A stretch of 64,000 nt of DNA from NCBI RefSeq assembly GCF_902167145.1, contig NC_050098.1, positions 84,856,207-84,920,206 on the forward strand. Direction: 5' to 3'. The DNA is from Zea mays. Lineage: Eukaryota; Streptophyta; Magnoliopsida; Poales; Poaceae. This document shows, in pieces, positions 13,497 through 59,319 of the stretch. Under the pieces are notes generated by a model, which was given only the letters and a program-made list of their open reading frames with translations, was not told where the DNA came from and ran no database searches. The position numbers were made by a program, and so were the translations under genes. Numbering within the stretch: position 1 is the first letter of the stretch; each line of letters begins with the position of its first letter.

Positions 13497-14129
13497 TGTG
13501 GGGGACAGATATCCCCCGGGTCCACTAGAAGGATAAAAGACCTCACGAAAGGCCCAAGGGCCCCATAATTCGCAAGGTCATCCCCTCGTGGGCCTGGGAG
13601 GAGTGACCAGTGGAACGGATTAGCACAAGGCCAGGTCGGCGCAAGCCCGGATGACCCAACAAATTCGAGCAGTGATCACAACAGTAACCCGACCTTCCCG
13701 CGCAGGGGCCCCGTACATCGGAACTGAGCGAGGATGAGTCGGCTGAACTATAGGAAGATAGACTCAGTTAGTTCGCTATTACTTTGGCACACGCTGTTAT
13801 CATATCCACATGTAATGCCCCACGGTCGAGTATATAAGGCCGAGGGAGCACCCCTTCAAGACGGGAGACATCATTCATCACTTAGCCATCCACCCCGCTC
13901 TCTACCTTTTCCAGCACTAGAGAGCTCCCTTGTAACTCATCGCATAAAGCATTCCAGCTAGGACGTAGGGTGTTACGCATCTCAAAGCGGCCCGAACTTG
14001 TACATCGTTGTCTACTATTTCTCGTGCGCCCAGCACGAACCATCGAGCTACAGTCGGTAACACCGTCCTACTCCTAAAAGCACCTTGGGGGGTAACCCTG
14101 GGTGCGCGGTCGGTCCCGAAACACCGACA
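13497..14129 (+). repeat. 5' LTR of element C
   Basis: It begins TGTGGGGGACAGATATCCCC and ends CGAAACACCGACA. A TATA box (TATATAAGG) is at 13831-13839. It matches 39580-40212 over its full 633 bp with about 25 substitutions and no indel that I can see. Confidence 0.95.
13831..13839 (+). promoter_or_regulatory. TATA box of element C LTR
   Basis: GAGTATATAAGGCC is conserved in the 3' LTR at 39914-39922. It stands about 290 bp from the LTR end, a fitting place for the core promoter of the genomic RNA. Confidence 0.65.
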
Positions 14130-19900: not shown

Positions 19901-21644
19901 AAAACATAAAGAGAATAAAGAAAAGGAAGGAAGAAATAAACCTCACTCCAATAAGTCCAACTTGAATTCTTGGCAACTCTCACTAAAGACCTTAAAAAGG
20001 AATTCAGTGGAACCCCAAAAATAAACCTACCACTTAACTTAGCTAAGGTTGATCCAATTTACCAAGTTTACCACCCAAAAGTCTCACATAAGTAAGGTTT
20101 AACTCTATCTAACTCAAGTAGATCATACACCATCAAAAGTTGAAATTACTAAAGCACATATAACATCATGCATATATCTTACGCATTGCATTCATTAGAT
20201 TGTAATCTCACCGACGGAGAGTACGTGCTCATCCCCGAGCAAGGAAGTGTCCAAGAGGAGGACCAGGAGCAAGCTCCCGAGGCTGCTATCTAGGATCTCC
20301 ATGCAGCCCCAACTATTGAAGGCAAGCCCCGGTTTATATGCATAACCGTATTATTATATGCTACTTTACTACACTTAATGCTTGTAGGATTGTAATGTGC
20401 ACTTAAGTGTAGGAGTTGCTTGAAACCTCTAGTTGCATGAACTTAGGATTCCTTTTTGAGATGAATACTAGTATGCTAGGTCGAGTAGCTGCTTGCTAAT
20501 CAGGATCTCGGTACAAGTCGAGTGGTTTTTCTAGCACTCGCGCGAGGTCAGGAATTGATTGTATTCATCTTGATAACGGGATCTATGTTAGTCTATGGAC
20601 TTGGATCCAGGGAGGATGCCTTGACCATGAGACGGGAAAAAGGAATTAAGGATTAATGTGTGGATACCTGAGTCGAGCGTTTGAACGTACTAAGCACATG
20701 TCGGGAGAAATGGTAACCGATAAATCAAGTACCTGAGTGAAGCCGGGCGCGGACTTTATCCCTCATGCGACCTGAGACTGGGTCTCCCATGCTAGCTATG
20801 GTGGGTACAAGTGCGGTCACTGCACGGCGGCAGCCGAGGTCAGTGGAGCATTGTATGCCAAGGCGGTGAGGCCTGGACGCGAACGGGGAATCGATGGGGA
20901 CGGTTGACGTGTGTTGGGACGGAGTACCCTGACATGTCGTGTGTTTAGGTTTACCTTGCAAGGATAAAACTCGATTCGAATCGTCTGCTTCTCGCAGCTA
21001 ATGAGACTGCTTGACCCCTTGTACTGCATCGAGTAAGAAGTGAAATGAGGTTACATGAGACAATTTGTTGATTGAACTAAATGCTTGTTACCATGTATGC
21101 TTAGAAGGAGCAAACCTAGCTAAAATAATGATACTAGAATCTGAAAGGCTAAGAATTGATTTTAGAAACAGCTAGTGCTTTTGGCAAACCAAACCCCTCA
21201 GCCAAACAGCTGCATAGTCTAGAGGTAGAGGAGTAGACTCCTCACACCGGGTAAGTCTAGCTGAGTATTAGTATACTTAGCCTTGCTTGTGGCATAATTT
21301 TTGCAGGTGCGCTTCAGGATATGGTTGATGGTGTGACTTGGCCTACCACCCTGCCACCGGGTTGGACAGTCGAGTGGGATGTTGCTCCGGCAGGAGTGGA
21401 GCACGAGGAGTAGTGGGCTAGGCCTTGCCCAATTCCTCAATACCGACGACATCGATTATCCGCTGCATTTTATTTTGTGAACTCTTATTTGCTACTCAAA
21501 AACTCCGATTTATGTAATAATTCAGCACTTAATTTGAGGTTTCCTGTTTTATTGTATTTCTTCTGTGACTCACCTTCGAGTGAGATTGTGGAATTTGATC
21601 CTGGTTAAGTGGCTCTATCAGACTAGATCTGAGGGACTGACGGG
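16985..21644 (+). repeat. Element D: Tekay/Del-type LTR, 3'-truncated, inside element C
   Basis: It starts TGTGACACCCTAG and is related along its whole length to the minus-strand 3' LTR of element G (59319 down to 44616). A TATA box (TATAAAG) is at 17849-17855. It ends at about 21644 after GAGGGACTGACGGG, whereas the G LTR continues about 80 bp to its true end. No 5-bp duplication of the bases before 16985 follows it. I therefore read it as a long (about 4.7 kb) LTR, solo or from a lost element, whose 3' end was removed together with adjacent element C sequence. It holds no gene that I can support; the short ORFs inside are chance. Confidence 0.82.
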
Positions 21645-22990
21645 GAGAACTGGCCGAGCACAAATTGAAGGTCTACCCCCAGGCGAGGCCAATTCGGCAA
21701 AAATTGTGTCGTTTCACGCCCGACAAGAGAGAGGCCATCTGCGCTGAGCTGGCTCGCTTAGTAGCGGCTGGATTTATTAGAGAGGTGTTACATCCCGAGT
21801 GGTTAGCCAACCCTGTTCTTGTACTCAAAAAGAATAAAGTGGATTGGCACATGTGCGTCGACTATACGGATCTCAACAAACACTGTCCAAAGGATCCCTT
21901 CGGGCTTCCTAGGATAGATTAGGTGGTAGATTCCACCACTGGATGTTCTGTGTTGTCTTTTTTGGATTGCTACTCTGGGTATCATCAGATCAGTCTGGCA
22001 AAAGAAGACGAGGAAAAAACAGCATTCATCACTCCTTTCGGAGCTTTCTGCTATACCTCCATGCCGTTCGGCCTCAAAAACGCTGGAGCGACTTACCAGA
22101 GAGCTATTCAAACATGCTTAGCCGATCACTAGGGCAAGCGTGTGGAAGCTTATGTTGATGATGTGGTAATCAAAACAGAAAATTCAGAAAATTTCATTGA
22201 AGATTTACAGCTGGTTTTCAACAGTCTACGGCGATATCGATGGAAGCTTAATCCCGAAAAATGTGTTTTCGGAGTACCAGTAGGAAAGTTACTCGGGTTT
22301 ATTGTCAGCCACCGGGGGATTGAAGCTAATCCAGAAAAGATCGAGGCTATCATGAGAATGGAAGCACCACGATCATAGAAGAAAGTTCAAAGACTTACCA
22401 GATGTATGGCAGCTCTGAGCAGATTTATATCCAGGCTGGGAGAAAAAGGCTTACCATTTTATAAGTTACTCAAGAAGGTGGACAAATTTCAGTAGACTTT
22501 AGAAGCACAGGAAGCCCTAGATGCATTGAAAAAATTCTTGACGACACCACCAGTGCTGAAACCACCGCGTCGAGTCACGCCGACTCAACCAGCTGAAGAT
22601 CTGCTGCTATATATCTCTTGCACGACTCACGTGGTGAGCACCGCGTTGGTAGTCGAGCGAGCAGAAGAAGGACATGCATACCCAGTACAACATCCTGTTT
22701 ATTTCATCAGTGAAGTTCTGGGTCCCTCGAACAAGAAATATTCTCAAGTTCAGAAGCTATTATATGCAGTACTTCTAACTGCACGCAAGCTCCGTCACTA
22801 CTTCGACGACCACAAAGTCATAGTAGTCACTGTATTTCCAATAGGAGATATTCTTCACAACAAAGAAGCCATCGGGAGAATAGCCAAGTGGGCCTGCGAG
22901 CTGGGATCTCATGACATTGAATTTCGACCTCGCACTGCCATTACAACTCAAGCACTGGTTGACTTCGTATCAGAGTGGACCGAATAACAA
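21645..22990 (+). pseudogene. pol: Element C reverse transcriptase and first RNase H
   Basis: The sequence resumes with the lead-in AEHKLKVYPQARPI and then FIREVLHPEWLANPVLV, the start of gypsy RT. The catalytic box YVDD is intact (about 22150-22161, in EAYVDDVVIKTE). A degenerate native RNase H follows (YSQVQKLLYAVLLTARKLRHYF near 22740-22805). Stops interrupt it at 21920-21922, 22130-22132, 22376-22378, 22493-22495 and 22985-22987. Most stand where Tat relatives have Gln or Trp. The enzyme would be inactive without readthrough. Confidence 0.9.
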
Positions 22991-23500
22991 GTACCGGATA
23001 ACCCGAAAACCGCAGAAGTATGGCGAATGTATTTCGATGGCTCGTTAAAGCTGTAGGGAGCAGGCGCAGGGATCCTCTTTACTGCACCTGGAGGCGAACA
23101 CCTCAGATATGCCCTTCAGTTGTTATTTCCAGCCTCTAACAATGCAGCAGAATATGAAGCTCTGATTCATGGACTGAACATTTCTATATCACTAGGCATC
23201 AAGAGACTGATGGTATATGGAGATTCTCTGGTAGTCATAAGTCAGATAAACAAAGAATGGGATTGTTCGAGCGATTCCATGGGAAAATACTGCACTGCCG
23301 TCTGGAAACTAGAAGACAAATTTGAAGGTCTGGAATTTCACCATGTAGAGAGAGATCGAAACACGGCAGCTGATGTATTGTCCAAGCTAGGATCCAGTCG
23401 AACTCAGGTCCCACCTGGAGTTTTTGTTCAAGAAATATCACACCCAAGCATCTCACTAGATCGGGCAGAAGAATGTAATACTTTGAGCCAACCAGAGTCA
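22991..23500 (+). pseudogene. Element C second (archaeal-type) RNase H
   Basis: Downstream of the native RNase H lies a second one with the motifs MYFDGSLKL (Asp), NNAAEYEALIHGL (Glu) and MVYGDSLVVISQINKEW (Asp). This is the additional archaeal-type RNase H domain known from Tat/Ogre-lineage gypsy elements, where it probably restores template degradation. A TAG at 23054-23056 stands within the first motif (LKL/GAGAG). The lineage assignment of C rests mainly on this domain. Confidence 0.87.
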
Positions 23501-24750
23501 GATTCTAATGACTGGATGGGGTCGATCATCAAATATATAAAAAATGAGGAGGAGCCAGATGACAAGAATACAGCCGAGCGCATCGCAAGACAATCGGCTC
23601 ACTATACACTCATTGGGGGAAACACTATACAGAAGGGGCGCATCAGGAGTCCTCATGAAATGCATCCTCTCAGCTATTGGAAAGCAACTTCTAAATGAGG
23701 TCCATGCTGGGCAATGTGGAGTACATGCAGCATCCAGGACCCTGGTTGGTAAGGTCTTCAGGTCAGGTTTTTACTGGCCAACAACAAAGAGTGATGGGCC
23801 GAGTTAGTCCAGAGGTACGAAGCCTGCCAGTACTTGTCAAAACAGCAGCATCTACCAGCACAGCAGCTGCAGACTATACCCATAACCTGGCCGTTCACAT
23901 GCTGGGATTGGATATGATTGGACCTTTCAAGAAAGCTCAAGGAGGATACACTCATGTACTGGTGGCTATCGACAAATTCACTAAATGGATAGAGTTCAAA
24001 CCCATTGCTTCTCTAACTTCAGCTAAGGCAGTGGAATTCATACAAGATATAATATTCAGGTTCGGGATACAGAATAGCATCATAACTGACCTAGGATCCA
24101 ACTTCACCAGTTCAGAATTCTTCGATTTCTGCGAGCAAAAGAGCATTCAGATCAAATATGCCTCGGTGGCGCACCCAAGAGCCAACAGGCAAGTAGAAAG
24201 AGCCAACGGGATGATATTAGAAGCACTCAGAAAGAAAGTCTTCGACTAGAATGAGAAGTTCGTAGGAAAGTGGATCAGAGAGCTGCCGTATGTGGTTTGG
24301 AGCCTGAGAACTCAACCTAGCAGAGCTCTGCATGGAAATACCCCCTTCTTTATGGTTTATGGTTCGGAAGCAGTGCTACCTGCTGATCTCAAGTTCGAGG
24401 CACCGAGGTTGATCTTTGAAAACATAGCAGAAGCTGAAGCTACTAGGCTGGAAGACGTTGATGTACTCGAAGAAGAGTGACTGAATACGGTGATTCAATT
24501 AGCACGATATCAGCAAACTCTGAGGCGCTACCATGATAAGGCCATACGGCATCGATCCTTCGCAGTGGGAGATCTCGTCCTCTGCCGAATTCTAACGGGG
24601 GAGGTGCGGCATAAATTATCACCTCTATGGGAAGGACCGTTCCTAGTAGCAGAAGTCACTTGGCCGGGATCATATCGCCTCACTCAGATGGACGGCACGG
24701 AAATTGGGAACTCATGGAATATAGAACACCTCAGGAAGTTTTACCCCTAG
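23501..24750 (+). pseudogene. pol: Element C integrase
   Basis: The N-terminal zinc region is HAGQCGVHAASRTLVGKVF (near 23703-23760) with YEACQYLSKQQ after it. The core has Asp in GLDMIGPFKKAQGGYTHVL, Asp in IITDLGSNF and Glu in NRQVERANGM. The C-terminal part includes AVGDLVLCRIL and LWEGPFLVAEVTWPGSYRL. Frameshifts lie near 23640-23690, 23790 and 23900, and stops at 24247-24249 and 24478-24480. The coding region ends at TAG 24748-24750. Confidence 0.88.
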
Positions 24751-24849: not shown

Positions 24850-25400
24850 TTGGCACGCTTACTTAACCCGGGGTGACCACTATGCCCTACTAACGGAGCA
24901 ATCGGCTTAAGTTGGCAATGACTTAAGGCGGTGCGACATGCTCACGCTTACCAAACTCAGGGTGACCACTATGCCCTACTAACAGAGCAATCGGCTTAAG
25001 TCGGCAATTACTTAAGGCGGTGCGACATGCTCACTCTTACCTAACTCAGGGTGACCACTATGCCCTACTAACGAAGCAATCGGCTTAAGTCGGCAATGAC
25101 TTAAGGCGGTGCGACATGCTCACGCTTGCTAAACTCGGGGTGACTACTATTCCCTTCTAACGGAGCAATCGACTTAAGTCGGTAATGACTTAAGGCGGTG
25201 CGACATGCTCACGCTTACCTAACTCAGGGTGACCACTACGCCCTAGTAACGGAGCAATCGGCTTAAGTCGGCAATGACTTAAGGCGGTGCGACATGCTCA
25301 CGCTTACTAAACTCGGGGTGACCACTAGGCCCTACTAGCGGAGCAGTCGGTTTAAGTTGGCGCTGATATAAATTGGCACGACATGCTTGGCACGTTTGCA
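24850..25400 (+). repeat. 89-bp tandem repeat array in element C (six units)
   Basis: The marker GGGTGACC (GGGTGACT in unit 4) recurs at 24871, 24960, 25049, 25138, 25227 and 25316, exactly 89 bp apart. Each unit also holds ATCGGCTTAAGT and CTTAAGGCGGTGCGACATGC, with small differences between units; the last is the most decayed. Tandem repeats just 3' of integrase are known in Tat-lineage elements such as Grande. Confidence 0.95.
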
Positions 25401-25593: not shown

Positions 25594-28328
25594 CTATTTA
25601 GTAATGTTCTTATCAGGAGCAACTGACGAAGAAGGACGGCTCGAGGAATCAGGAGCGGCATTCACGTCAGCCACTATGTCGTCAGGAACAACCACGCCGG
25701 GTCTCCTCATCAAGATCCGCCCCGCGCGAATAGCTTTATCCATAGCTTTATCGCGCTGGGCCCTCAAGGTAGCAGAAGTCTCGTCAGCAGCCTTGACAGC
25801 CAGACGAGCAGTTTCTAGTTCCTGGGCGATGGATTTCTTGGAAGCGCGCATATCCTTGATGACAGCATCTTTGGTCGACACCAACTGCCTGAGGCAAATC
25901 ACATCATCCAAGGACTCTTGCAGCTTATAACGATGATTATCTAACTCCTCTCTGGTGAAGCGATGACTTCTCTCCAAGATGGTCAATGAATTGCTGGCGT
26001 CGCGGTATAGCTTGTCAAGGTTGTCACGAGAAGTGGCGAGGGCACGTTTTTCCTCCTGTAGACAAGAATCAGTTTCTCCAAACGTCGAGCAAGCAATAAG
26101 AAGACAACAAACAAAGCCAAGATTCACAGGTCACCTTTTCAGAGTCGAGCTGAGCATGGAGAGTAGAGTTCAGCGTGTAGCATCATTCAGAGAAGCAGAA
26201 ACCCGGGCCAGTTCAGTCTGACCTTGAGAATACTTTTCTTCAAGATCAGAGCACCACCGGGCCAGTTCAGTTTGACCTTGAGAATGTTTTCCTTCAAGAT
26301 CAGAGTACTGCCGAGCCATATCTGTCAAGAAACAGTCAAGCAAAGGTGTTAAAATAAAAAGCAGTTTAATCAGGTAGCCAAAAAAGAAACAAAAGAGCAC
26401 CGACCGGCATTTGCCGCCTCCAAATCAGATACACACCGCTGAAGCAGCACTGGATTCCAACGCGCCAGAGACAAAGCTCCTTCTGGGACAGAGGCACCCT
26501 GCAACTTCAGCCAACTAGACATCTCATCGAGCAACGCCTAGCATTAAAAACAGACAAGCATGAGAACAATTATCTGCCTGGGTAAAGTCAGACCAGAAGA
26601 AACCAAAATACCTGGAGGTTGGAGAAGAATGAGGGGACCCCCAATTCGTGAGAGATCAACTGATGGCTCGGCGAAGGATCACCAACTAGAACAACTCGCA
26701 ACGAATTAGCAAGAACCAATTCAGTGTCATCAGCAGAACCTAGAACTCTGTCGTCGGGTGCGCTGGCCTCTAAAGCGACTCCTTGACCGAAGGCTTGGGC
26801 TATCACCATGCAACCAGAGTGTGGAGGAGAAGACCCTACGTGAACATCCATGGAAGTGTGGGATGGAGAACCCACTCGGACACCCTCGGGGGCTGGGTCA
26901 CAGCTCTCGTTACCCATCCGAGCCGGATCATCTCCGGTAACACCCTCGGGGGCTGGGTAAGCGCCAGCACCATCCTTGAGGGCCGAGTTCTCTGCAGCAG
27001 CCACCTCTAAGGCTGAAGGTCCCTCAGTCACTTCCATGGGAGCAGTGCAATCCAGACCAGCCTCCTGACCCTCAAGACCGCGCTCCAAGGTCGATGAGGC
27101 GCGGGACGCTGCCCGGGATGACCCCAACCCGACATCGGGCACATCAGCACAAACATCCATTGCGCCACCATCTGCCGGCTCTGACAACAGATCTTCTAGA
27201 ACCATGTCTTCAAGAGTTTGATCAAAGTTTGCCAGAGATAATTCTTGCAGACCAATGAGTTCAGACAAGGCAGGAGAAGGAACACCACTACTTTCCCCAC
27301 TAGCTATGTAACGCCGGCTGTTCTTCCAAATCAGAGGGATTTCATCCTCTTCTTCATCATCTTCATCAACAACACGGACAGTACACCCATTGGGGTCAGC
27401 ATCAGACGGGTCACACCCATTGGGGTCAGCTTCAGCAAAATCAGGCAGTGGCACTTCCTCAGCAACAGGAACAGAAGGACCGGCACCCTGATCCAAGCTA
27501 GACACTCGACGAAGACGTCTCGTCTTCTTTTTCTGCCCCTCAGCAGGAAAAGTGGGATGATCGGCTCGACGAGAACGTTTCGGGCGAACATTGTCAGACA
27601 TCTGAGCGTCCAAAGCTTTGCCGACCTCAGGGATGGGCGCCACCACCAGTGTTTCAGTAGGAGCGGCGTCAGAAGAATCCTCAGCTAACATATCTAGCAT
27701 GGCATTTATCTCCGCGTCACTTGGATTCAAAGGCACCTCAAAATGAACCTGCCTCTCGTCGTCAAGAATTTCTCCGAGCGAGGCAACCAAAGCACTAACT
27801 TCTTCGGGAGAGGGTCGCACTCTAAGGCGCAAACCGCTATCACCAGCAGGATGATTTGACACGAAACTGGTAAAGGCCTGAGAAGGAGGCAAATTCCAGG
27901 CCGAGTATGCAACAAGAGCACCGACGTTCGACACCTTGCCTCTGAGTATCATCTCGAGCCGGCTCACCAAGTCCACAGCAGGAATTCTTCTGTTGGTTAC
28001 CCGGGTTGAATCAGCCAAGCCTCGGTACAGATTGGCCGGATATGCTCTGTCTTTCAGTGGCCGAATGTTCTTGAAAACAAAGTTAGCGACCACATCTTCT
28101 GCAGTTAGACCCCTTTCTTTCAACAATCCAACTTCTGCTAACAGAGCCCCTGTCTCAGCCACCTCCTGGTCTGTGGGGGATTCGGTCCAGCTCGGAGTGC
28201 GAACATCCGGCTGTCTCCTCGACCGTGGGTGGAGGGAATTCCCATGATTCTGCACGATGAACCATTCCAGGCGCCATCCCTTGATGCTGTCCTTGAGTGG
28301 GACGTCGAGGTAGTTGGTCTTCCTCCCA
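25594..28328 (-). pseudogene. Element C antisense gene, 3' part: exon 1 remainder and exons 2-4
   Basis: On the minus strand a spliced gene can be read. Exon 1 continues from the J insertion site at 28328 to 26612, exon 2 is 26537-26405, exon 3 is 26321-26135 and exon 4 is 26055-25594 (stop). All three introns (74, 83 and 79 bp) have GT-AG ends, and the reading phase fits across introns 1 and 2. Exon 1 holds a conserved helical region (EDVVANFVFKNIRPLKDRAY) and a long acidic, low-complexity region. Exon 3 has a 17-residue duplication with the core SQGQTELAR. Exon 4 is a predicted coiled coil (KLYRDASNSLTILERSHRF). One frameshift lies in exon 3 near 26170-26185. The function is unknown. Genes of this type, antisense and 3' of integrase, have been noted in Tat-lineage elements. 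The 5' part is at 36509-36897. Confidence 0.8.
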
Positions 28329-28333
28329 CGGCG
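28329..28333. other. Target site duplication of element J, left copy
   Basis: CGGCG precedes the LTR start TGTTGGGGAC and is repeated at 36509-36513 after the right LTR. Confidence 0.9.
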
Positions 28334-28973
28334 TGTTGGGGACTTGTTCTGAAATACTAAAAGTTAAGAACAAGGCAACATAAAAAGTGTTAAATGTTAA
28401 AGTCCTTCGTCCTTATAAACATTATATCCCTTCGGATATAATGAACTCTAGACGAAGGTTACAAGGAAAAGACCTTCGTAAATTCGACAGATGACGAAGA
28501 AGAACACCATTAATTTCTTTCTATTATCAAATTCATAGAAACAAATTATAAATGTACCTTTGAATTGATGAAAAGTAAAGGTACAGGCGTGATACAAAAA
28601 GCGAATGCCAAGTCAGCGTGAACAGTACGGGAGTACTGTTCATCTATTTATAGGCACGGGACGCGGCCCGTGTAAAATTACATTAATGCCCTTTACATTT
28701 ATCAATAACTCTATAGTAACTCTTCGAGGTCTAATTTGGCTTTTCATCTTTAAGTCGGTTCCCCTTTTCTGCCGTCATGCCGAAGCTTTTCTGCACATAG
28801 CTTCGTGATCGTCTTATCCTTCGTCATGATCGCCTTCCATCCCAGTCAAGCTTCGTCTTGACCATGCTCTTGTATACCCGTAACCTGATTCCGAAGATGC
28901 CTGCTCGCATACTTGGAAAACATTGTCAAATCATATTTTTGAGGACCTTCGGAAGCCGAAGGCCCCCCCAACA
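28334..28973 (-). repeat. 3' LTR of element J (640 bp)
   Basis: The LTR is bounded by TGTTGGGG and CCCCAACA and is rich in the motif CTTCG/CGAAG. On the minus strand a TATA box, TATAAATAG (28652-28644), is directly followed by a perfect 9-bp inverted repeat with a 4-base loop (28640-28619). Confidence 0.93.
28644..28652 (-). promoter_or_regulatory. LTR TATA box of element J, beside a hairpin
   Basis: TATAAATAG on the minus strand is conserved at 35267-35259 and 36189-36181 in the other LTR copies. GAACAGTAC, GGGA, GTACTGTTC (28619-28640) begins three bases downstream and would place a stem-loop between the TATA box and the expected transcription start. Confidence 0.6.
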
Positions 28974-28985
28974 GTAGCCCCTCGC
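28974..28985 (-). other. Polypurine tract of element J
   Basis: On the minus strand GCGAGGGGCTAC abuts the TG of the 3' LTR. Confidence 0.65.
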
Positions 28986-29128
28986 AATATTAATTTGCTA
29001 TAATGATAAATTCATATTGCGACATGGACGAAGGCCTTAAGCCGAAGGTCCGAAAAAACACCTTCTCTTTGCTAGAATAGCAACAGTCTTTGACAAGCAG
29101 GACCCTCCAGTTTTCAACGCACTAGGTG

Positions 29129-29136
29129 TATAAATA
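29129..29136 (+). promoter_or_regulatory. TATA box of the antisense gene in element J
   Basis: TATAAATA on the plus strand, in TGTATAAATAAGGGC, lies about 150 bp upstream of the first in-frame ATG (29281) of the antisense gene and outside the LTR. This points to a promoter separate from that of the retrotransposon. Confidence 0.55.
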
Positions 29137-29280
29137 AGGGCTCATCACGAGTTTATTTGGCACACTCTCTTGTCAACTGCTTTTACTCACCCAACTTTTA
29201 GCCTGCGCGCAACAACACCTGCTTGGCTTTTTAGATTTTTAAGCTTCGGTTTCGAGAGCACCCTCTCAGCGTTTGCAAGG

Positions 29281-32200
29281 ATGTCTGAAGATAAAAAAGT
29301 TGTCGGTGATTCGAAGCTAAGTCTTTCTGAGGAGATGCATCTGGGCTTTCTTCAATCAATGTCAAAGACTAATATAGAGAAGATTACTAAAGAAATTTTG
29401 GAGGGTTTATCTGAAGATACTGGTGACAGTGACAGTTATGATGTGGATAGTGGTGGTGAAGACTCCGAAGAACGACATTGGCGACCAAGCCATGCGGTTT
29501 TTGGTAAATCAAGTATTAAAGAAAATCATCTTGTCAATATGAGGGGCAGATATTTTTGGGACTTGTCCGATGTGAGGGCTGACGAAGGAGAGAAGACTTG
29601 TTCGACTCCTAAGGAAAATGAAGTCGTGGTATTCCGAAGCTTCTTGAAAGCTGGACTACGATTTCCCTTAAGCAGTTTGTTGTGGAAATACTGAAGATAT
29701 TTGAAATCTACCTTCACCAACTTACACCCGAAGCAATCATAAGGATGAGCATCTTTGTGTGGGCCGTGAGAAGCCAAGGTTTGGAACCTAATGCGAAAAG
29801 TTTCTGCAACATACATGAGTTATTGTACGAGACAAAACCCTGGGGTAAAGAACAGTATCACAACAATTTTGGCTGCTACAGCTTCGGCTCCCGGTCTGGG
29901 TCAAGTTGCCCCGTGCCAACCTTTCGAAAGAGGTGGCCCGGCGACTGGATGACGGAATGGTTTTACGTGAATAATGACTTGAAATCACGGGAAGATATAA
30001 AAAGTATCATTATGCGTCCCATTTGGCAACGCTTCGGCCTGTGAAGGCCGAAGGTGGAAATGAATGAAGCAGCCGAAGAATGCCAGAGAGCCTTCGGTGT
30101 TGTTTGCTCTTTTATTGGGACAAGGGATATGGTCCAAGAACACATTGCCATCAGAGTATGGCCACTTGTGGAAAAATGGGAAATACCGAAGGAGACCATT
30201 AAAGAAACTGATGAAGGTGGACTAGTCAGGCTGAAATACACATTTAAATATGGAGATAAATTTGTTGAGCCAGATGACGACTGGTTGAAAAGTATTGAGG
30301 CCATCAGTGATGAATTGCTTGGTGTATACTCAAAGGCCGAAGATACTGCATTATCAGCGGCCTTCGGAGGCCGAAAGAGGAAGAGGCTCAACCGAGTATT
30401 TGATGCAATTGGGTTTGTCTACCCCGACTACCGCTATCCAGCGCGGGGTCAAAAAAAGGAAGAATCCATCTTCTGCGAAGGAAACTGCTTCAGTCGCTCC
30501 TAGTGAGCCGGCGCCGAAGAGGAAAAGGGTAAAGGTTCTCACACACCGGCCATGTTATATTGAACCGGCCACAGTGCCTGAATTTGCTAGTGAGACCTCT
30601 TCGACCACCGAAGCTAAAGAGCCAACTCCCCTGCCAAATATTGAAGTGCTGGCCGAAGTGCCAGCGACTGAAAAAATAGAAGAACCTAGAGCTGAAGAAA
30701 TAAAGACATCAGAAGTCTTGAGTCCTTCGGCAGAAACTGAGACAACAAAAAGCCATAAGGGTCTAGCAGTGACCCCTAAAAGAAAAAGGATGGTTAATGT
30801 GCTAGATGTTTTAGAGACAATCAAATCTTCAAGCACACATCCAAAGAAAATTGCTAAAACTTCCGAGGTACACACTGAAGCCTTTGTCGCCGAAGCTTCA
30901 AAGCAACAGTCTGAAATTGAAGCCGGGCCTTCAGAGCCCGCCAAGGTGAAATCCTTGGAAGCCGAAAAAACAGAAATAGCAGAACAAACTTTGGCTGAAG
31001 AAACTGGCACTGCTGCCCCCGAAGCATCTTCCAAAGTGCTTGATTATATTGTACGACATGCTTCGGGGAAGAAATTATCTGAAGAAGAGATTTTTGAAAC
31101 TAATCACTATGCCCGAGAGCTGAAGTATCCGAAAGGGGCCTTAGTATTCAACGACACAGATGAAGATGACTTCTTATACTGCCTCCCAGACAACAAAGAA
31201 TTATCTGTCTGCCGGGAGATGGCTAGAAGTATGGGGTTTCCGAAGCTTGAAGCTGGGCTCTGCGCTATGACGAAGGACGATCTTGCGGATAGCCTTGCAT
31301 ATAATAGTCTGAAGGTATGAGAATTGTATATTTGGTAATTTATAATTTTTGAATCATTCTTTTATTCTTATAGTAATTCTTTTTTCATATAGGGTTTAAT
31401 ACTGAGCAACGCTTTGAGAGCGCAAAAGAATGCCGAAGACGAGAGCTATAATATTTCTTTCAACAACCTACGAACAGAGGTTATTAAGCTGAGGAACGAA
31501 GCTTTGGAAAAAGATAAAATTCTGCTTACATTGGTGGATAAAATAAAGGAAGACGAAGCTACATCTAAGGCTCAAGCTGAAGCCCAAAAACGCGAAATTC
31601 AGGATCTTCAAAAACAGCTAGCTAGAGCTAAAGAAGAACGCATACTTGAAGAGACAAAACGAGAACTTAGTGATCAATGGGCAAATCATTTGGAAATAAA
31701 TGTTGAAGAGCTTCGTGCATCCAAGAAACGGTGCTATGACAAATCCATAGAGGGTGTTAAGAAAATAAAATCTAGCTTCGCCAGCGTTGGCGCATTCTCT
31801 AGCGAAGAAAATTTCACAAGAGATAATCCAGAAGGCCCGATTGAATGGATCAGTCACGAAGCTGAGGCCTTCGAGGAAATCTTGAATAGCCGCGGAGACA
31901 TATGTGCTTTTTGGGGCGCCAGGGGGATTGCTACTGTTTTGGAAAGAAAAGGCTGTGAGCATGTGAAATCTTTAGCGCAATCCGAAACTGCCTTGTCTTC
32001 CGAAGATATAAAAGACCCCTCGGCCGAAGCAAGCCTGCTCGGTGGAAAATTTTTCACCGACATCTGGGACAATGGCGGCCGAGGAATGGCACAAGAAATC
32101 ATTCAAAAAAGCGAAAAAGGCATCCATGATGCTAGGAAGGTAGCAGAGGTTGCTGAGAAAAGCGCAGAACCCGAAGGGCAAATAGGTATTAATTAGTGAT

Positions 32201-32418
32201 AACTGGCTCTTCGTTGTAACTTTTTGATTTCGAACTTGTTCATGTTTTGTAATGGTAATATATCGATATCTCCTCTTCCCTCAGAACCTGCTGAGCTATC
32301 TCCAGGCCCCCACACGAAGGGGGATGACGAAATTAGGCAAATGGTCGAAGCCATCATGGATAGAGTTGTTGATCAGCTTCTAAACGAAGCTGCAGAAGTA
32401 GTCTTTAAGGAAGATTAA
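29281..32418 (+). pseudogene. Element J antisense gene, three exons, related to the antisense gene of element C
   Basis: It starts at MSEDKKVVGD. Exon 1 is 29281-31314, intron 1 is 31315-31392 (GTATGA to ATATAG), exon 2 is 31393-32185, intron 2 is 32186-32284 (GTATTA to CCTCAG) and exon 3 is 32285-32418. Both junctions keep phase, giving about 987 codons. The N-terminal third has LTPEAIIRMSIFVWAVRSQG and related stretches that I recognise as the 'putative gypsy type transposon' domain family. The middle is Glu/Ser/Pro/Lys-rich with basic KRKR clusters that could be nuclear signals. Exon 2 is a coiled coil followed by a conserved acidic region. The gene is broken by a one-base frameshift near 29675, a TGA at 30042-30044 and a frameshift near 30445. 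The function is unknown. Confidence 0.78.
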
Positions 32419-32840
32419 ATGCTGCTGTAAAAACATTTAGATTGTAAAACTTGCTTAGAATCATGTGTAACATTGTGTAACTTTGGATATAGCATATTAG
32501 ATGTTTATAATTCTATTTTTGACGATGCATGAAACATCATATACATACCATTTTTGAGCCTTCGGAGAAAAAACACCTTCCCTTCTTTTCATGCTTCGTA
32601 AAAATCAATAATCAATCCTTGTAAAATCAATAATCAATAGATCCTTCCATTTCAGGGTTTGACGATGGTATAACTTTTCAACGGCTATTTTTTGTGCCTT
32701 GTCACTATTTCTTCAAAACAATCTTCGAATATCAATATCGAGACCCCCCTTCTTGCGTTTTTGATGCACTATGATGTATGATGTTATGCTATGCAAATGA
32801 TGTAATGATGTAATGTTGTGCAAAATGATATCTGCCGAAG
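32419..32840. other. Spacer in element J after the antisense gene
   Basis: This AT-rich stretch has no coding signal. It probably contains the 3' end of the plus-strand antisense transcript. I see nothing else in it. Confidence 0.4.
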
Positions 32841-33060
32841 GTTGACATTAATTTTTCTCTGTAAGCCTCCCTTAGGAGCTTCTTCGCCTTTTACTTCAGC
32901 GGAAGCAGCGTTTATTTTTCGCTGCAAGCCTCCCTTAGGAGCTTCTTCGCCTTTTACTTTCAGCGGAATCAGCGTTTATTTTTCTCTGTAAGCCTCCCTT
33001 AGGAGCTTCTTCGTCTTTTACTTTCAGCGAAATCAGCGCTTATTTTTCGCTGTAGGCTCA
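32841..33060. repeat. 63-64-bp tandem repeats in element J (about three and a half units)
   Basis: AAGCCTCCCTTAGGAGCTTC recurs at 32863, 32926 and 32990. The repeats also share CTTTTACTTTCAGCGGAATC-like text and end with a decayed copy near 33050. They lie between the convergent gag gene and antisense gene. Confidence 0.88.
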
Positions 33061-33561
33061 GAAAACTTACACTGCGCTCCCTTAGGAACGACTTTTTGCT
33101 GCTTCGAAAAAATTGCACTGCGTTCCTTAGAATAAATTTTTGATAATTCGAAGGTCCTCCTCGCCATCATAAATTCTCATGCTTCGGCAACTTAGGTCTA
33201 TGGAGAAGATATATTTTCATTATGGTAAAAAGCGAAACTATTACAAGAAATTGAAAGACGATAAAAGACATTTAGACTTCCCATAATTGTTCCTTATTAA
33301 AAAGAAAGTAATACTGAATGTGAAAATGCGAAAAGCTGCTGTCGAGGTAGGATATTTGTTAGTAAATGTGCTTTGACTCTGGCACAGTGCTATTGACTGT
33401 GCGAGCTTCGGACTCCTCTCTGAAGTCCCGCTGAAGGTGAGTGTGCTGACTCCCTTTTGGCTGCTGACCTCGTTGTGTTGGTGGTGGCGGTGGAGGCTGT
33501 TGCCAAGATGCTTGGGTTGGCTTGCCGAAGCAACAGAAGCTGCAGGGTGATTGCCTACATA
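33061..33561. other. Non-coding spacer 3' of element J gag
   Basis: Read on the minus strand downstream of gag, no protease, RT or integrase motif is present. The sequence keeps the CTTCG-rich composition of the element. Only short chance ORFs occur. Confidence 0.5.
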
Positions 33562-34875
33562 TTATGGAATGTAAGGCGAATGGTACGAAGCAGTATGCAT
33601 GACCTGCTTCGGCTGACTCTGTTGTGCTGCAGCTTCTGCTATCTCCTTTTGCTTCTGGATGGTAACATGGCACATCCTGGTGGTATGGCCCTTGTCTTCA
33701 CCACAAAATAGGCAGTAAATTTTTCTTGGCTGATCCCCAAATCTTCCCCCGAAGCCCCTGGCGCCTCTGCCCCTTGGCGCTAGCGGCCGAAAAGAGCTTT
33801 GTTGCTGCCCCGAAGCTTGCGAAGAGTATTGTGGCCTTTGCTGTTGGCTCCCTCTATCATCACTTTGAGTAGAGTTATGAATTGACCTGACGTGCCTCGG
33901 ATGAAATCTTCCTCCGAAGCCCCTGGTCATTTCAGAGAACCTGAATGCTTCCTCTCTTCTTTGGCGAAAGTCATTGTCAGCTCGAATATACTCATCCGTC
34001 TTCTGGAGCAGCTTCTCCAAAGTTTGTGGTGGCTTCCTGGCAAAGTATTGCGCTGAAGGTTCCGGCCAAAGTCCCTTAATCATGGCCTCAATGACAATTT
34101 CATTGGGCACTGTTGGCGCCTGTGCCCTCAGACGCAGAAACCTTCGGACATATGCCTGAATGTATTCTTCGTGGTCCTGGGTACACTGGAATAAAGCTTG
34201 AGCGGTAACTGGCTTCGTCTGAAACCCTTGGAAGTTGGTTATCAACATATCCTTCAGCTTCTGCCATGAGGTGATTGTCCCTGGCCGAAGAGAGGAGTAC
34301 CAGGTTTGAGCGACACTCTTGACGACCATGACAAAAGACTTTGCCATGACTGCAGTATTGCCACCATACGAAGATATGGTTGCTTCATAGCTCATCAAGA
34401 ATTGCTTCGGGTCTGAATGACTGTCGTACATGGGGAGCTGGGGTGGCTTGTAAGACTGGGGCCATGGTGTAGCCTGCAATTCTGTTGATAGAGGAGAAGC
34501 ATCATCAAAAGCAAAATTTCCATGATGGAAATCTTCATAACAGTCATCCTCATTGTAGAAGCCCTCCTGATGAAGCTCTCTGCGCAGAGGCCTTCGATTC
34601 TGGTCATCTTGAGCAAGATGACGAACCTCTTCCGAAGCTTCATCTATCTGCCTCTGAAAGTCAGCTAGGCGAGCCATCTTCTCCTTCTTTCGCTGCACCT
34701 GTTGATGGAGCATCTCCAGGTTTTGGATTTCCTGGTCCAAGTCGTCCTCCGGAGGCGTTGGACTGGTGGCCTTCCTCTTCTGGCTTCGGGCCTCCCTAAG
34801 AGAAAGGACGTCCTGATTGGGGTCCAGCGGCTGTAGAGTGGCAGCCCCTGTCGCTGAAGCTTTTTTCGGCGGCAT
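33562..34875 (-). CDS. gag: Element J gag, intact
   Basis: The 437-codon frame starts at MPPKKASATG, 73 bases after the truncated LTR and its primer site. Residues 50-100 are charged and helical (QEIQNLEMLHQQVQRKKEKM). Residues 150-290 hold the gypsy gag domain with WYSSLRPGTITSWQKLK and YVRRFLRLRAQAP. Residues 350-395 are Arg/Gly/Gln-rich. A zinc knuckle, CLFCGEDKGHTTRMC (CX2CX4-type), lies at about residues 398-412. It ends at TAG 33562-33564 without a fused protease. An intact gag in an element without pol suggests it could still supply or join particles, but whether it is expressed is unknown. Confidence 0.88.
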   Translation of the reverse strand: MPPKKASATGAATLQPLDPNQDVLSLREARSQKRKATSPTPPEDDLDQEIQNLEMLHQQVQRKKEKMARLADFQRQIDEASEEVRHLAQDDQNRRPLRRELHQEGFYNEDDCYEDFHHGNFAFDDASPLSTELQATPWPQSYKPPQLPMYDSHSDPKQFLMSYEATISSYGGNTAVMAKSFVMVVKSVAQTWYSSLRPGTITSWQKLKDMLITNFQGFQTKPVTAQALFQCTQDHEEYIQAYVRRFLRLRAQAPTVPNEIVIEAMIKGLWPEPSAQYFARKPPQTLEKLLQKTDEYIRADNDFRQRREEAFRFSEMTRGFGGRFHPRHVRSIHNSTQSDDRGSQQQRPQYSSQASGQQQSSFRPLAPRGRGARGFGGRFGDQPRKIYCLFCGEDKGHTTRMCHVTIQKQKEIAEAAAQQSQPKQVMHTASYHSPYIP

Positions 34876-34931
34876 GACGAAGGTGATGCTTGCCGAAGAT
34901 GTTCAAAGCTCAAGAAATGGAAGTGAGTTCA

Positions 34932-34948
34932 CCCACGGTGGGCGCCAA
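34932..34948 (-). other. Primer binding site of element J, inner copy
   Basis: On the minus strand TTGGCGCCCACCGTGGG follows the truncated LTR directly. This is a common primer site of Tat-type gypsy elements. The outer copy at 35854-35870 has two changes. Confidence 0.75.
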
Positions 34949-35445
34949 TGTTGGGGACTTGTTCTCAAATACTAAAAGTTAAGAACAAGGCAACATAAAA
35001 AGTGTTAAATGTTAAAGTCCTTCGTCCTTATAAACATTATATCCCTTCGGATATAATGAACTTTGGACGAAGGTTACAAGGAAAAGACCTTCGTAAATTC
35101 GACAGATGACGAAGAAGAACACAATTAACTTCTTTCTATTATCAAATTCATAGAAACAAATTATAAATGTACCTTTGAATTGATGAAAAGTAAAGGTACA
35201 GGCGTGATGCAAAAAGCGAATGCCAAGTCAGCGTGAACAGTACGGGAGTACTGTTCATCTATTTATAGGCACGGGACGCGGCCCGTGTAAAATTACATTA
35301 ATGCCCTTTACATTTATCAATAACTCTATAGTAATTCTTCGAGGTCTAATTTGGCTTTTCATATTTAAGTCGGTTCCCCTTTTCTGCCGTCATGCCGAAG
35401 CTTTTTTGCACATAGCTTCGTGATCGTCTTATCCTTCGTCATGAT
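34949..35445 (-). repeat. Truncated internal LTR of element J
   Basis: The 497 bp match the corresponding part of both outer LTRs, including the TATA box (35267-35259) and hairpin, but the first 141 bp of the LTR (minus-strand sense) are missing. At 35440-35445 the LTR text ...CATGAT is joined, through four extra bases, to gag text. Confidence 0.9.
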
Positions 35446-35870
35446 AATTGAAATCTTCATACCAGTCGTCCTCATTGTAGAAGCCCTCCTGATGAAGCTC
35501 TCTGCGCGGAGGCCTTCGATTCTGGTCATCTTGAGCAAGATGACGAACCTCTTCCGAAGCTTCATCTATCTGCCTCTGAAGGTCAGCTAGGCGAGCCATC
35601 TTCTCCTTCTTTCGCTGCACCTGTTGATGGAGCATCTCCAGGTTTTGGATTTCCTGGTCCAAGTCGTCCTCCGGAGGCGTTGGACTGGTGGCCTTCCTCT
35701 TCTGGCTTCGGGCCTCCCTAAGAGAAAGGACGTCCTGATTGGGGTCCAGCGGCTGCAGAGTGGCAGCCCTTGTCGCTGAAGATTTTTTCGGCGGCATGAC
35801 GAAGGTGATGCTTGCCGAAGATGTTCAAAGCTCAAGAAATGGAAGTGAGTTCACCCATGGTGGTCGCCAA
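35446..35870 (-). pseudogene. Duplicated 5' end of element J gag
   Basis: On the minus strand this repeats the outer primer site and the first 117 or so gag codons (MPPKKSSATRAATLQ to DDWYEDF), about 97% like the inner copy. It then runs into the truncated LTR and stops at 35429. It cannot yield a full gag. Confidence 0.88.
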
Positions 35871-36508
35871 TGTTGGGGACTTGTTCTCAAATACTAAAAT
35901 TTAAGAACAAGGCAACATAAAAAGTGTTAAATGTTAAAGTCCTTCGCCCTTATAAACATTATATCCCTTCGGATATAATGAACTCTGGACGAAGGTTACA
36001 AGGAAAAGACCTTCGTAAATTCGACAGATGACGAAGAAGAACACAATTAACTTCTTTCTATTATCAAATTCATAGAAACAAATTATAAATGTACCTTTGA
36101 ATTGATGAAAAGTAAAGGTACAGGCGTGATGCAAAAAGCGAATGCCAAGTCAGCGTGAACAGTACGGGAGTACTGTTCATCTATTTATAGGCACGGGACG
36201 CGGCCCGTGTAAAATTACATTAATGCCCTTTACATTTATCAATAACTCTATAGTAATTCTTCGAGGTCTAATTTGGCTTTTCATCTTTAAGTCGGTTCCC
36301 CTTTTCTGCCGTCATGCCGAAGCTTTTCTGCACATAGCTTCATGATCGTCTTATCCTTCGTCATGATCGCCTTCCATCCCAGTCAAGCTTCGTCTTGACC
36401 ATGCTCTTGTATACCCGTAACCTGATTCCGAAGATGCCTGCTCGCATACTTGGAAAACATTGTCAAATCATATTTTTGAGGACCTTCGGAAGCCGAAGGC
36501 CCCCAACA
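35871..36508 (-). repeat. 5' LTR of element J (638 bp)
   Basis: It matches 28334-28973 with about ten substitutions plus small indels. The TATA box on the minus strand is at 36189-36181. It is followed by the target duplication CGGCG (36509-36513). Confidence 0.93.
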
Positions 36509-36897
36509 CGGCGCATCTCCAAGCTCGCGCCCCCCACCAGCTGGTGCTGCCCTCTAGCCATCCTAGGCCGACAGTGGTACAAATACTTCCAAAGGCCAAA
36601 GTGGGGCAAAACACCAAGAAAGGCTTCGCATAAATGAACAAAAACAGAAACTTGCAGAATAGAATTGGGGTTCAGATGGGTCAGATTCAAGCGATAGAAA
36701 TCAAGGAGACCGCGGAAGAAAGGAGAAATGGGAAGATCAAGTCGGCGGATAAGAAAAGGAACGTAAATGACGGATTCGTGGGTGTCTTCTGTCGGAACAG
36801 TGACCCCATGGCAGATCCACCATGAACAGAGCTCCTTCGGAGGAAGAACTCCGATGGAAACGAGATGAAGAAGGTCGGATTCAGAGACAACAGACAT
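36509..36897 (-). pseudogene. Element C antisense gene, 5' part of exon 1
   Basis: On the minus strand the frame starts at MSVVSESDLL (36897) or at an upstream in-frame Met (37050). It includes VPTEDTHESVIYVPFLIRRL and FVHLCEAFLGVLPHFGLWKY, which I recognise as the 'putative gypsy type transposon' domain (Pfam family of that name). It reaches SLEMRR at the J insertion site. Counting the 5-bp duplication once, the frame continues without a shift at 28328 (GRKTNYLDVPLKD). Exon 1 is then 702 codons, and the whole spliced frame is about 960 codons. Function and localisation are unknown. Confidence 0.82.
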
Positions 36898-37872: not shown

Positions 37873-38342
37873 CTAGCCACTGGCCTTGTTGCTGCCCTTG
37901 CTGCTGCCCTTGCTGCCGTCGCCGCCGTCGCCGCTGCCACCCTTGCCGCTGTCATCACCGCCCTTGACGCTGTCGCCGCCGCCGTCACCGTCGCCTTCGT
38001 CGTCGTCGCCGTAACCGCCATCGTCGCCGCTGCCCTCCTCGGACGAGTCGGAGGGATTCTCCTCGTCCGAGGAGTACTCCGACTCATCTGAGCCCTCGAG
38101 CCCGACGCACTCGATGGCCCGGATGTAGGTCCATACCTCCGCGGCGATCCCCTGGGAGTCGTCTGAATCATCAGACGACGCCGGGGGAGAGGCAGGAGCC
38201 GGAGAGCCCTCGGACTCGGAGGAGAACTCCTCCTCCGAGTATTCCGAGTCGCCGAAGTCCTCCGATGGAGGAGTCGGCTCACGCTTGCGCTTGTCGCCCG
38301 AGTGATGCGAAGAGCCGCCACCATTCTTGCTCTTGCCCATGG
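37873..38342 (-). CDS. Element C second antisense ORF: acidic Ser/Gly-rich protein
   Basis: An intact minus-strand frame of about 155 codons runs from MGKSKNGGGSSHHSG to NKASG and a TAG. A short basic N-terminus (HSGDKRKREP) is followed by Ser/Glu/Asp clusters (residues about 30-60), one less repetitive segment (GIAAEVWTYIRAIECVGLEG, about 78-97), more acidic Ser/Glu sequence and a Gly/Asp/Ser tail. The frame is open further upstream, but this ATG is chosen because a TATA box lies about 75 bp before it. I do not recognise the family. The low-complexity ends look like an intrinsically disordered nuclear protein, but that is inference. Confidence 0.55.
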
Positions 38343-38413
38343 TGGAAGTGAAAGGAAGGAGAGGAGATGAAACAGCAAGAAGTAGCAAGAAATGTGAAAA
38401 TGTCGAAGAAGCA

Positions 38414-38422
38414 AGAGCACTA
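38414..38422 (-). promoter_or_regulatory. TATA box of the acidic antisense ORF
   Basis: On the minus strand TTCTATAAATAGTGC lies about 75 bp upstream of the ATG at 38342, a usual plant distance with a short leader. It is far from either LTR, so it would drive antisense transcription independently. Confidence 0.5.
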
Positions 38423-38550
38423 TTTATAGAATAAGAAGGCAACCGCTCACCTCCTACCACGGCCACCGAACAGTCACAAAAATTCAATATGCAATTCAAA
38501 TCGTCTGAAGACACGTCAGGCGGCTGACGCCGTTTCACGTAACACGACAC

Positions 38551-39579: not shown

Positions 39580-40212
39580 TGTGGGGGACAGATATCCCCC
39601 GGGTCCACTAGAAGGATAAAAGACCTCACGAAAGGCCCAAGGGCCCCATAATTCGTAAGGTCATCCCCTCGTGGGCCTGGGAGGAGTGACCAGTGGAACC
39701 GATTAGCACAAGGCCAGGTCGGCGCAAGCCCGGACGACCCAACAAATTTGGGCAGTGATCGCAACATTAACCTGACCTTCCCGCGCAGGGGCCCTGTACA
39801 TCGGAACTAAGCGAGGATGAGTCGGCTGAACTATAGGAAGATAGACTCAGTTAGTTCGCTATTACTTTTGCACACACTGTTATCATATCCACATGTAATG
39901 CCCCACGGTCGAGTATATAAGGCCTAGGGAGCACCCCTTCAAGACGGGAGACATCATTCATCACTTAGCCATCCACCCCGCTCTCTACGTTTTCCAGCAC
40001 TAGAGAGCTCCCTTGTAACTCATCGCATAAAGCATTCCAGCCAGGACGTAGGGTGTTACGCATCTCAACGTGGCCTGAACCTGTACATCATTTTCTACTA
40101 TTTCTCGTGCGCCCAGCATGAACCATCGAGCTACAGTCGATAACACCGTCCTACTCCTAAAAGCACCTTGGGGGGTAACCCTGGGTGCGCGGTCGGGCCC
40201 GAAACACTGACA
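39580..40212 (+). repeat. 3' LTR of element C
   Basis: The 633 bp match 13497-14129 with about 25 substitutions. The TATA box is at 39914-39922. The GCTGG duplication follows at 40213-40217. Confidence 0.95.
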
Positions 40213-40217
40213 GCTGG

Positions 40218-50400: not shown

Positions 50401-51076
50401 GCGGTGGAGATGTCGCGGGTTTGTTATGAAGGAGAAGAATGAGCTGACAACGTGGGACCCACATGTTAGTGATGGAGCGCGACTGACGCAGGGAGTCCAC
50501 CAATCAGCCGGTCATACGTTAGCGCGTGACGTGGGGTGGAGATTTTGGGCCGGCAGGAGAGATAAGTGGAGAAAATGGGCTGCTGGGTAATGTGTCGGCC
50601 CAAGACCAGGTTTGTTTTTCTTTTCTTTTCCTTCCCTTTCTAATTTCTTTTATAATTTCTGGTTTGTTTTCCAATTCAAGGATTCAAGCTACATTTGCAT
50701 TACTGTTCTGAAATCAAGATTTCCAAATATACACAAGACTCCCAATGTGAATTTAACACTCATGGTTTGCCTTAACATTATTTATTCATCTTTCTACTTA
50801 ATTATGGCAAAAATAAATGCTTTTATTAAGATTCCTTTGATGTTTTATTTATAATTTGAGATCAAATTTAAGTTACGATTTCTTTATTTCAACAAAATGC
50901 CTCACAACAAAATCATTAGCATGAGATGCACATTTCCTAGCTTTTATTCTCTTAATTAATTATGATAGTGGAAGGAAATTAAAAATCTCTAAAGGTTTCA
51001 AACATTCTCAAAACCCCTTATAACTTTATTATTATATTTATTTTTTTTCTACCAATTTTTTTTTTTGGGCATTACA
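47467..51076 (-). repeat. 3' LTR of element E (3610 bp)
   Basis: The ends are TGTAACACCC and GGGCATTACA on the plus strand. It contains G9 (47748-47756), C8 (49890-49897), C22 (50150-50171) and T11 (51056-51066) runs that differ in length from the other LTR. The short ORFs within it are identical or nearly so in both LTRs only because the LTRs are recent copies. Confidence 0.95.
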
Positions 51077-59300: not shown

Positions 59301-59319
59301 GTGACACTGGGGTGTCACA
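56306..59319 (-). repeat. 3' LTR of element G, 5' portion
   Basis: On the minus strand it begins TGTGACACCCCAGTG at 59319 and is related to D 16985-20020. The TATA box TATAAAA is at 58447-58441 (minus). Compared with D about 160 bp are missing between this piece and the continuation at 46160. No gene is present. Confidence 0.82.

What the first reader, a model, noticed from the sequence alone, without database searches (positions are those of the whole stretch)
25594..36897. Spliced antisense gene inside element C, open across the nested insertion
On the strand opposite gag-pol, four exons with GT-AG introns of 74, 83 and 79 bp can be read (36897-36509 plus 28328-26612; 26537-26405; 26321-26135; 26055-25594). 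Removing element J and one copy of its CGGCG duplication restores a continuous frame, so exon 1 was 702 codons when J inserted. Phases fit across introns 1 and 2. One frameshift in exon 3 is the only break I find, while gag-pol of the same element has more than ten. The N-terminal part resembles the 'putative gypsy type transposon' domain; the rest is acidic linker and coiled coil. A long antisense gene that stays open longer than pol suggests selection on it or recent acquisition.
Basis: partly seen in the sequence, partly recalled or inferred. Interest (0 to 1): 0.8.

Follow-up and report, generated by a model that had tools for sequence, protein, structure and literature searches.

The report
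Spliced antisense gene in maize retrotransposon
A decayed maize jumping gene carries, on its opposite strand, a spliced accessory gene of a known but poorly understood kind; related copies keep its protein and its three introns, and a second small antisense gene lies beside it.

Summary
The host is maize: contig C5 has the length of the contig of a Zea mays NCBI protein (P0234) that equals exons 2-4 joined at introns 2 and 3. In 20 further copies, chosen for long open frames, exon 1 is uninterrupted. With the window, the three introns keep GT in 20/20, 20/21 and 21/21 rows and AG in 20/20, 21/21 and 21/21. Pooled dN/dS is 0.06 in exon 1a, 0.21 in exon 1b, 0.13 in exon 4 and 0.04-0.08 in pol; copies not chosen for openness agree, except two pol pieces (0.18, 0.26). 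So the family's protein is under selection. This copy is dead, and in unchosen copies the gene does not clearly outlast pol. It is not recently acquired: antisense Transposase_28 genes mark the Retand lineage. Conserved introns in it are not described in the papers I could see. I also found a second antisense gene for a small acidic protein (37873-38340), behind a TATA box; it is open in 4 of 5 copies examined, dN/dS 0.15.

The parts
13497..14129 (+). 5' LTR of element C; GCTGG duplication at 13492-13496 and 40213-40217
   Evidence: 25 differences in 633 aligned bases to the 3' LTR
39580..40212 (+). 3' LTR of element C
21641..24750 (+). broken pol of C: RT, RNase H, additional RNase H (RVT_3), integrase
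   Evidence: Pfam matches in order RVT_1, RT_RNaseH, RVT_3, rve; stops and frame changes
36509..36897 (-). exon 1a, Transposase_28 domain; relatives start upstream, at the equivalent of ATG 36987
28334..36508 (.). nested element J inside exon 1; CGGCG duplication on both sides
26612..28328 (-). exon 1b: rest of the conserved part, acidic linker with a basic cluster
26538..26611 (-). intron 1 (74 bp, GT-AG)
   Evidence: GT 20/20 and AG 20/20 rows; no spliced protein covers it
26405..26537 (-). exon 2
   Evidence: present in spliced maize protein P0234
26322..26404 (-). intron 2 (83 bp, GT-AG)
   Evidence: removed in P0234; GT 20/21, AG 21/21 rows
26135..26321 (-). exon 3, with one frame break
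26056..26134 (-). intron 3 (79 bp, GT-AG)
   Evidence: removed in P0234; GT 21/21, AG 21/21 rows
25594..26055 (-). exon 4, probably coiled coil, with the stop codon
   Evidence: 1672 homologues by E-value, 120 listed; dN/dS 0.131 in 17 copies
37873..38340 (-). second antisense gene: open frame for an acidic protein of 155 residues
   Evidence: open in 4 of 5 copies; dN/dS 0.154
38421..38428 (-). TATAAATA, 88 bp upstream of the acidic gene's ATG
   Evidence: at 81-89 bp in 5 of 5 copies

Best explanation
This is a dead copy of the antisense accessory gene of a Retand-type (Tat clade, Ty3/gypsy) LTR retrotransposon of maize, possibly of the Grande family. It has four exons and encodes a protein with a Transposase_28 domain, an acidic linker with a basic cluster, and a helical C-terminus. 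Proposed working: intact copies transcribe the gene from inside the element, opposite to the genomic RNA, and splice it; the protein probably acts in the nucleus on the element's own expression or integration. The genomic RNA carries these introns as reverse complements, which are not splice sites, so they survive reverse transcription. Shown: gene structure, conservation of splice sites and reading frame among copies, one annotated maize protein lacking introns 2 and 3, decay of this copy. Inferred: splicing of intron 1, transcription in this family, nuclear role, function, and why the introns persist.
For: PF04195 in exon 1a, E 1e-24. P0234, an NCBI Zea mays protein, equals exons 2-3-4 joined exactly at introns 2 and 3; its contig is as long as C5 of this genome. 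In 20 copies exon 1 is continuous and exon 4 follows; in the 19 of 20 that hold any of the pol pieces, pol is on the opposite strand. Splice sites kept in 20/20, 20/21 and 21/21 (GT) and 20/20, 21/21 and 21/21 (AG) rows; introns diverge more (0.256, 0.243, 0.224) than exons 2 and 3 (0.178, 0.177), and their lengths are not tied to multiples of three. dN/dS 0.062, 0.208 and 0.131 in exons 1a, 1b and 4, 0.038-0.082 in pol pieces. In eight homologous ORFs picked from the 120 listed, amino-acid identity is 83% in exon 3, 53% in the read-through of intron 3, 87% in exon 4. Order RT - RNase H - RVT_3 - integrase, as stated for Ogre and Retand (PMC6317226, passages).
Against: No RNA evidence was available for this family. 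P0234 is a gene model whose support I did not see, and it starts inside exon 2, so nothing spliced covers intron 1 or links the Transposase_28 part to the C-terminus. The search for long spliced proteins gave only two ORFs with internal deletions. The 20 copies were chosen for long open frames. Identity after the intron 1 donor drops at some positions only (0.27-0.38 at three, but 0.81 and 0.97 at two others). No structure could be predicted (pLDDT 28.9), and no function was tested.
Confidence: 0.82

Rival explanations
1. The antisense transcript, not the protein, is what matters: it pairs with genomic RNA and regulates the element through double-stranded RNA.
For: PMC7264820 (parts 1-2 of 3 read) names this as a possible role, alone or together with a protein; linker parts of exon 1b are weakly constrained (dN/dS 0.42-0.43).
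Against: dN/dS 0.05-0.13 in the conserved parts and frame-specific constraint in the acidic gene (0.154 against 2.0 and 2.9 in the other frames) need translation. It does not exclude an added RNA role.
Confidence: 0.1
2. A host gene captured recently by this element.
For: The gene has introns, as host genes have.
Against: The same gene lies in the same place in 20 of 20 copies examined, 150 of 150 scored genome matches pass the PF04195 cut-off, and PMC11963269 reports the domain in antisense ORFs of 97% of clusters and no similar sequence outside such elements.
Confidence: 0.03
3. This copy itself is kept by selection, for instance as a host-used gene, which is why it looks less broken than gag-pol.
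For: No stop codon in 898 codons counted outside exon 3, against 11 in gag-pol.
Against: A frame change at the start, an 8-kb insertion in exon 1 and a frame break in exon 3. The antisense frame has fewer one-transition routes to a stop (5.7 against 8.7 per 100 codons).
Confidence: 0.02
4. Chance open frames with introns drawn by eye.
For: Short GT-AG gaps are easy to find.
Against: 572 open codons against at most 256 in 1000 shuffles; P0234 and the conserved splice sites and frames.
Confidence: 0.01

Closest known systems
Antisense Transposase_28 (TRP28, PF04195) ORFs of Retand elements (Vicient 2025, PMC11963269; parts 1-3 of 5 and passages seen)
   Same: Domain, antisense strand, place between pol and 3' LTR, tandem repeats beside it, lineage
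   Different: Reported there as unspliced ORFs from ORF Finder; the word intron does not occur in the text held. Here three conserved introns and a C-terminal part beyond them
gene23 of maize Grande (Gomez-Orte 2013; original not seen, known from PMC7264820 and PMC11963269)
   Same: Maize, antisense between pol and 3' LTR, own promoter, nuclear product; C has Grande's size (LTR 633 against 631 bp, about 13.9 against 13.8 kb; table in PMC3091746, passages)
   Different: I could not compare sequences, so I cannot say whether gene23 is this gene, the small acidic gene or part of either, nor whether its introns were described
Antisense ORF3/ORF4 of Retand-2 of Silene (named in PMC11728184, passages; original not seen)
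   Same: More than one antisense ORF in a Retand element
   Different: Sequences not compared
Spliced plant LTR retrotransposons Ogre and EVADE (PMC12786077, passages)
   Same: Introns inside an LTR retrotransposon
   Different: Their introns serve the sense RNA; here they lie on the opposite strand

Membership tests
Retand lineage (Tat clade, Ty3/gypsy) | Additional RNase H between RNase H and integrase | tested here: met
   RVT_1, RT_RNaseH, RVT_3, rve in that order; shared with Ogre (PMC6317226)
Retand lineage (Tat clade, Ty3/gypsy) | Antisense Transposase_28 gene between pol and 3' LTR | tested here: met
Retand lineage (Tat clade, Ty3/gypsy) | Long pol-3' LTR region (2,933-6,566 bp in PMC11963269) | tested here: inconclusive
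   about 6.65 kb by subtracting J's length, just above the published range
Retand lineage (Tat clade, Ty3/gypsy) | Place in a reverse-transcriptase tree | not tested
   no reference RT set was at hand
Grande family | Sequence identity to Grande1 (X97604) | not testable with these tools
   record not held; only sizes agree (PMC3091746 table)
Spliced protein-coding gene | Splice sites conserved while intron bodies diverge | tested here: met
Spliced protein-coding gene | Purifying selection on the protein | tested here: met
Spliced protein-coding gene | RNA reads across the junctions | not testable with these tools
   no RNA data; P0234 gives indirect support for introns 2 and 3 only

The most novel reading that the evidence does not exclude
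Retand elements carry a conserved antisense cassette of two protein genes, a TATA-driven acidic protein and an intron-bearing Transposase_28 protein, and the antisense placement is what lets a retroelement keep introns through its RNA phase. The introns then record which strand was copied, and splicing separates the antisense mRNA from the genomic RNA.
Probability: 0.4. Interest if true: 0.62.

Novelty: new variant of a known kind. Interest (0 to 1): 0.48.

Why it matters
The function of the antisense gene found in nearly all recently active Retand clusters is open. Surveys that look for long unspliced ORFs cut the protein at intron 1, lose its C-terminal part, and can miss a 155-residue gene. 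A gene model with conserved junctions and a conserved TATA box gives exact sites to look for in RNA and a full protein to test. A 2025 review says that plant LTR retrotransposons generally lack introns, with Ogre and EVADE as notable exceptions (PMC12786077, passages).

Tried and rejected
Structure prediction of relative P0006 with 45 rows gave mean pLDDT 28.9 and no residue at 50 or above, so no fold search was made. Scans of viral contigs (two) and of prokaryote genome contigs (one) found no relative. No solved structure related to exon 1a by sequence. Rfam and tRNA scans of the window were empty. A search for long proteins holding exons 2-4 scored 7989 candidates and gave two, both ORFs that join exon 1 to exon 4 sequence through internal deletions. 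The sigma-70 promoter scan is not meant for plants and was not used. No clean target duplication was found for the insertion in pol. In one search two J queries (linker and C-terminal part) had no match in the 41 loci held; the third query was in the wrong frame and says nothing. The idea that the antisense gene outlasts pol was tested and not upheld as a rule. Papers: eight searches listed no paper on introns in this antisense gene; Gomez-Orte 2013 and most subscription papers are not held.
Full report
Where it is. The window is a nest of plant LTR retrotransposons. Element C has LTRs at 13497-14129 and 39580-40212, with 25 differences in 633 aligned bases and the duplication GCTGG. J sits inside C at 28334-36508, with 9 differences in 634 aligned LTR bases and the duplication CGGCG. 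The genome search placed the window on contig C3 of an assembly of 2.18 Gb. Contig C5 is 226,353,449 bases long, the same as the contig of the Zea mays protein P0234, so I take the host to be maize.

The gene. Exon 1a matches PF04195 with E 1e-24. For exon 1b, 1061 of 7995 scored candidates are homologues at E 0.001, and for exon 4 (with some read-through of intron 3) 1672 of 1764; 120 of each were listed, nearly all from metagenome contigs. Of the 120 listed for exon 1b, 80 reach the end of exon 1; 71 read on, and in 68 of these 71 the residue after the conserved glutamine is valine, as a GT donor in this phase gives. Beyond it identity is 0.27, 0.33 and 0.38 at three positions but stays 0.81 and 0.97 at two others. 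P0234 equals exons 2, 3 and 4 joined exactly at introns 2 and 3. In eight homologous ORFs, picked from the 120 listed because they read from exon 3 into exon 4, amino-acid identity is 83% in exon 3, 53% in the read-through of intron 3 and 87% in exon 4.

What is broken. Among the 242 proteins held, 15 carry the N-terminal stretch DPNSQLPF and 12 of these show a start like MAPKRKAS before it; in the window that start and the rest lie in different frames. Exon 3 has a second break, and J is a third. By my reading of the open stretches gag-pol has at least 11 stops and 3 frame changes, and a further insertion of about 4.6 kb near 16995-21640 whose ends are only roughly placed.

Other copies. PF04195 gave 39000 first-look candidates in the genome, of which 150 were scored and listed, all above the cut-off. 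I fetched 20 of the 150, all with open frames of 747 codons or more. In 20 of 20, exon 1a is followed 3 or 6 bases on by exon 1b in the same frame, then by exon 4; 2 of the 20 have a stop inside exon 1b, and one match to exon 1b is partial. In 19 of 20 some pol piece is present, on the opposite strand. This shows the uninterrupted exon without touching J. Over these 20 and the window, with rows that have mostly gaps left out per intron: intron 1 GT 20/20 and AG 20/20; intron 2 GT 20/21 and AG 21/21; intron 3 GT 21/21 and AG 21/21. The misfit is L028, where exon 2 and the start of intron 2 are missing. Mean distance among copies is 0.256, 0.243 and 0.224 in the introns and 0.178 and 0.177 in exons 2 and 3; intron lengths are not tied to multiples of three. 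None of these rows shows a precise intron loss.

Selection. Pooled Nei-Gojobori dN/dS among the chosen copies, segments with stops left out: exon 1a 0.062 (20 copies), exon 1b 0.208 (18; 0.052 in its first 120 alignment columns, 0.418 and 0.433 in two later blocks), exon 4 0.131 (17), seven pol pieces 0.038-0.082 (12-17 copies each); an eighth pol piece gave no usable row. In nine copies taken in list order regardless of open frame (one of them, L014, also in the first set): exon 1a 0.065, exon 1b 0.224, exon 4 0.122; five pol pieces 0.045-0.096 and two at 0.182 and 0.259. Decay after insertion pushes such values up, so I infer that the constraint while the family was active was stronger.

Does it outlast pol? 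In the window, two small breaks against gag-pol counts of 10, 12 or 16 give P 0.18, 0.11 or 0.03, and the antisense frame has fewer one-transition routes to a stop, 5.7 against 8.7 per 100 codons. In the seven of nine list-order copies with over 300 codons of both genes: 14 breaks in 5969 antisense codons, 21 in 5000 pol codons, p 0.09, stops alone p 0.66; the pol frame changes are over-counted by up to one per copy, because one pol query itself runs into a frame change of the window. In the 18 usable chosen copies the contrast is strong, p 0.00025, but they were chosen on the antisense frame. In J, by eye, the antisense gene has two frame changes and a stop while a gag frame of 437 codons is open. 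So the contrast belongs to this copy and is not a rule.

A second antisense gene. At 37873-38340 (minus) lies an open frame for an acidic protein of 155 residues, with ATG in the context CACCATGGGC and the octamer TATAAATA 88 bp upstream. In upstream DNA of five of the 20 copies it is open in four (141-151 residues from the equivalent start) and broken in one; the octamer stands 81-89 bp upstream of the start in all five. Over 76 codons of the window and the four open copies dN/dS is 0.154 in this frame and 2.0 and 2.9 in the other two. Surveys with limits of 600 bp (PMC11963269) or 250 codons (PMC6317226) would not list it. Whether its promoter also serves the Transposase_28 gene is unknown. 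A genome-wide search for it did not complete.

J too. J's antisense gene on the plus strand has a PF04195 match below the cut-off (22.0 bits, cut-off 26.2) and a candidate intron of 78 bp, GT-AG, at 31315-31392, after which the same frame resumes in a helical-looking part. This intron has not been tested on other copies.

Known and new. Antisense Transposase_28 ORFs are reported in 97% of recently active Retand clusters (PMC11963269, parts 1-3 of 5 read), and Transposase_28 in 23% of Retand elements in an older survey (PMC6317226, passages). Grande's gene23 is antisense, has its own promoter and a nuclear product (PMC7264820, parts 1-2 of 3; original not seen). C fits Grande in size (PMC3091746, passages). 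What I did not find in print, by the searches, are the conserved introns and the small acidic gene; the 2013 Grande paper could hold either. PMC7264820 asks for a look at antisense and spliced transcripts. Function stays open: PMC11963269 predicts DNA binding, and nothing here tests that; that the basic cluster in the linker may be a nuclear signal is recalled knowledge.

Noticed in passing
window 37873-38428 (-): Second antisense gene: acidic protein of 155 residues behind a TATA box, conserved in family copies.
   Followed up: yes
window 29170-32196 (+), intron 31315-31392: J has its own antisense gene with a weak Transposase_28 match and a candidate 78-bp intron just before a helical-looking C-terminal part.
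   Followed up: partly
window 33562-34875 (-) and J as a whole: J has an open gag frame and an antisense gene; no pol domain was seen in the J frames that were scanned, so it may be non-autonomous. Not all frames were searched.
   Followed up: partly
window 34522-36367: A tandem duplication of about 922 bp in J: part of the LTR and the start of gag are repeated, giving three LTR-like copies.
   Followed up: no
window 16995-21640: An insertion of about 4.6 kb splits gag-protease from RT of element C; parts of it match 56416-59320 and 44695-46165 elsewhere in the window.
   Followed up: partly
window 24854-25361: Array of an 89-bp unit, 5.7 copies, between pol and the end of the antisense gene.
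   Followed up: no
window 47467-55852: Two direct repeats of about 3.6 kb, 99.5% identical (47467-51076 and 52246-55852), perhaps long LTRs of a very young element.
   Followed up: no
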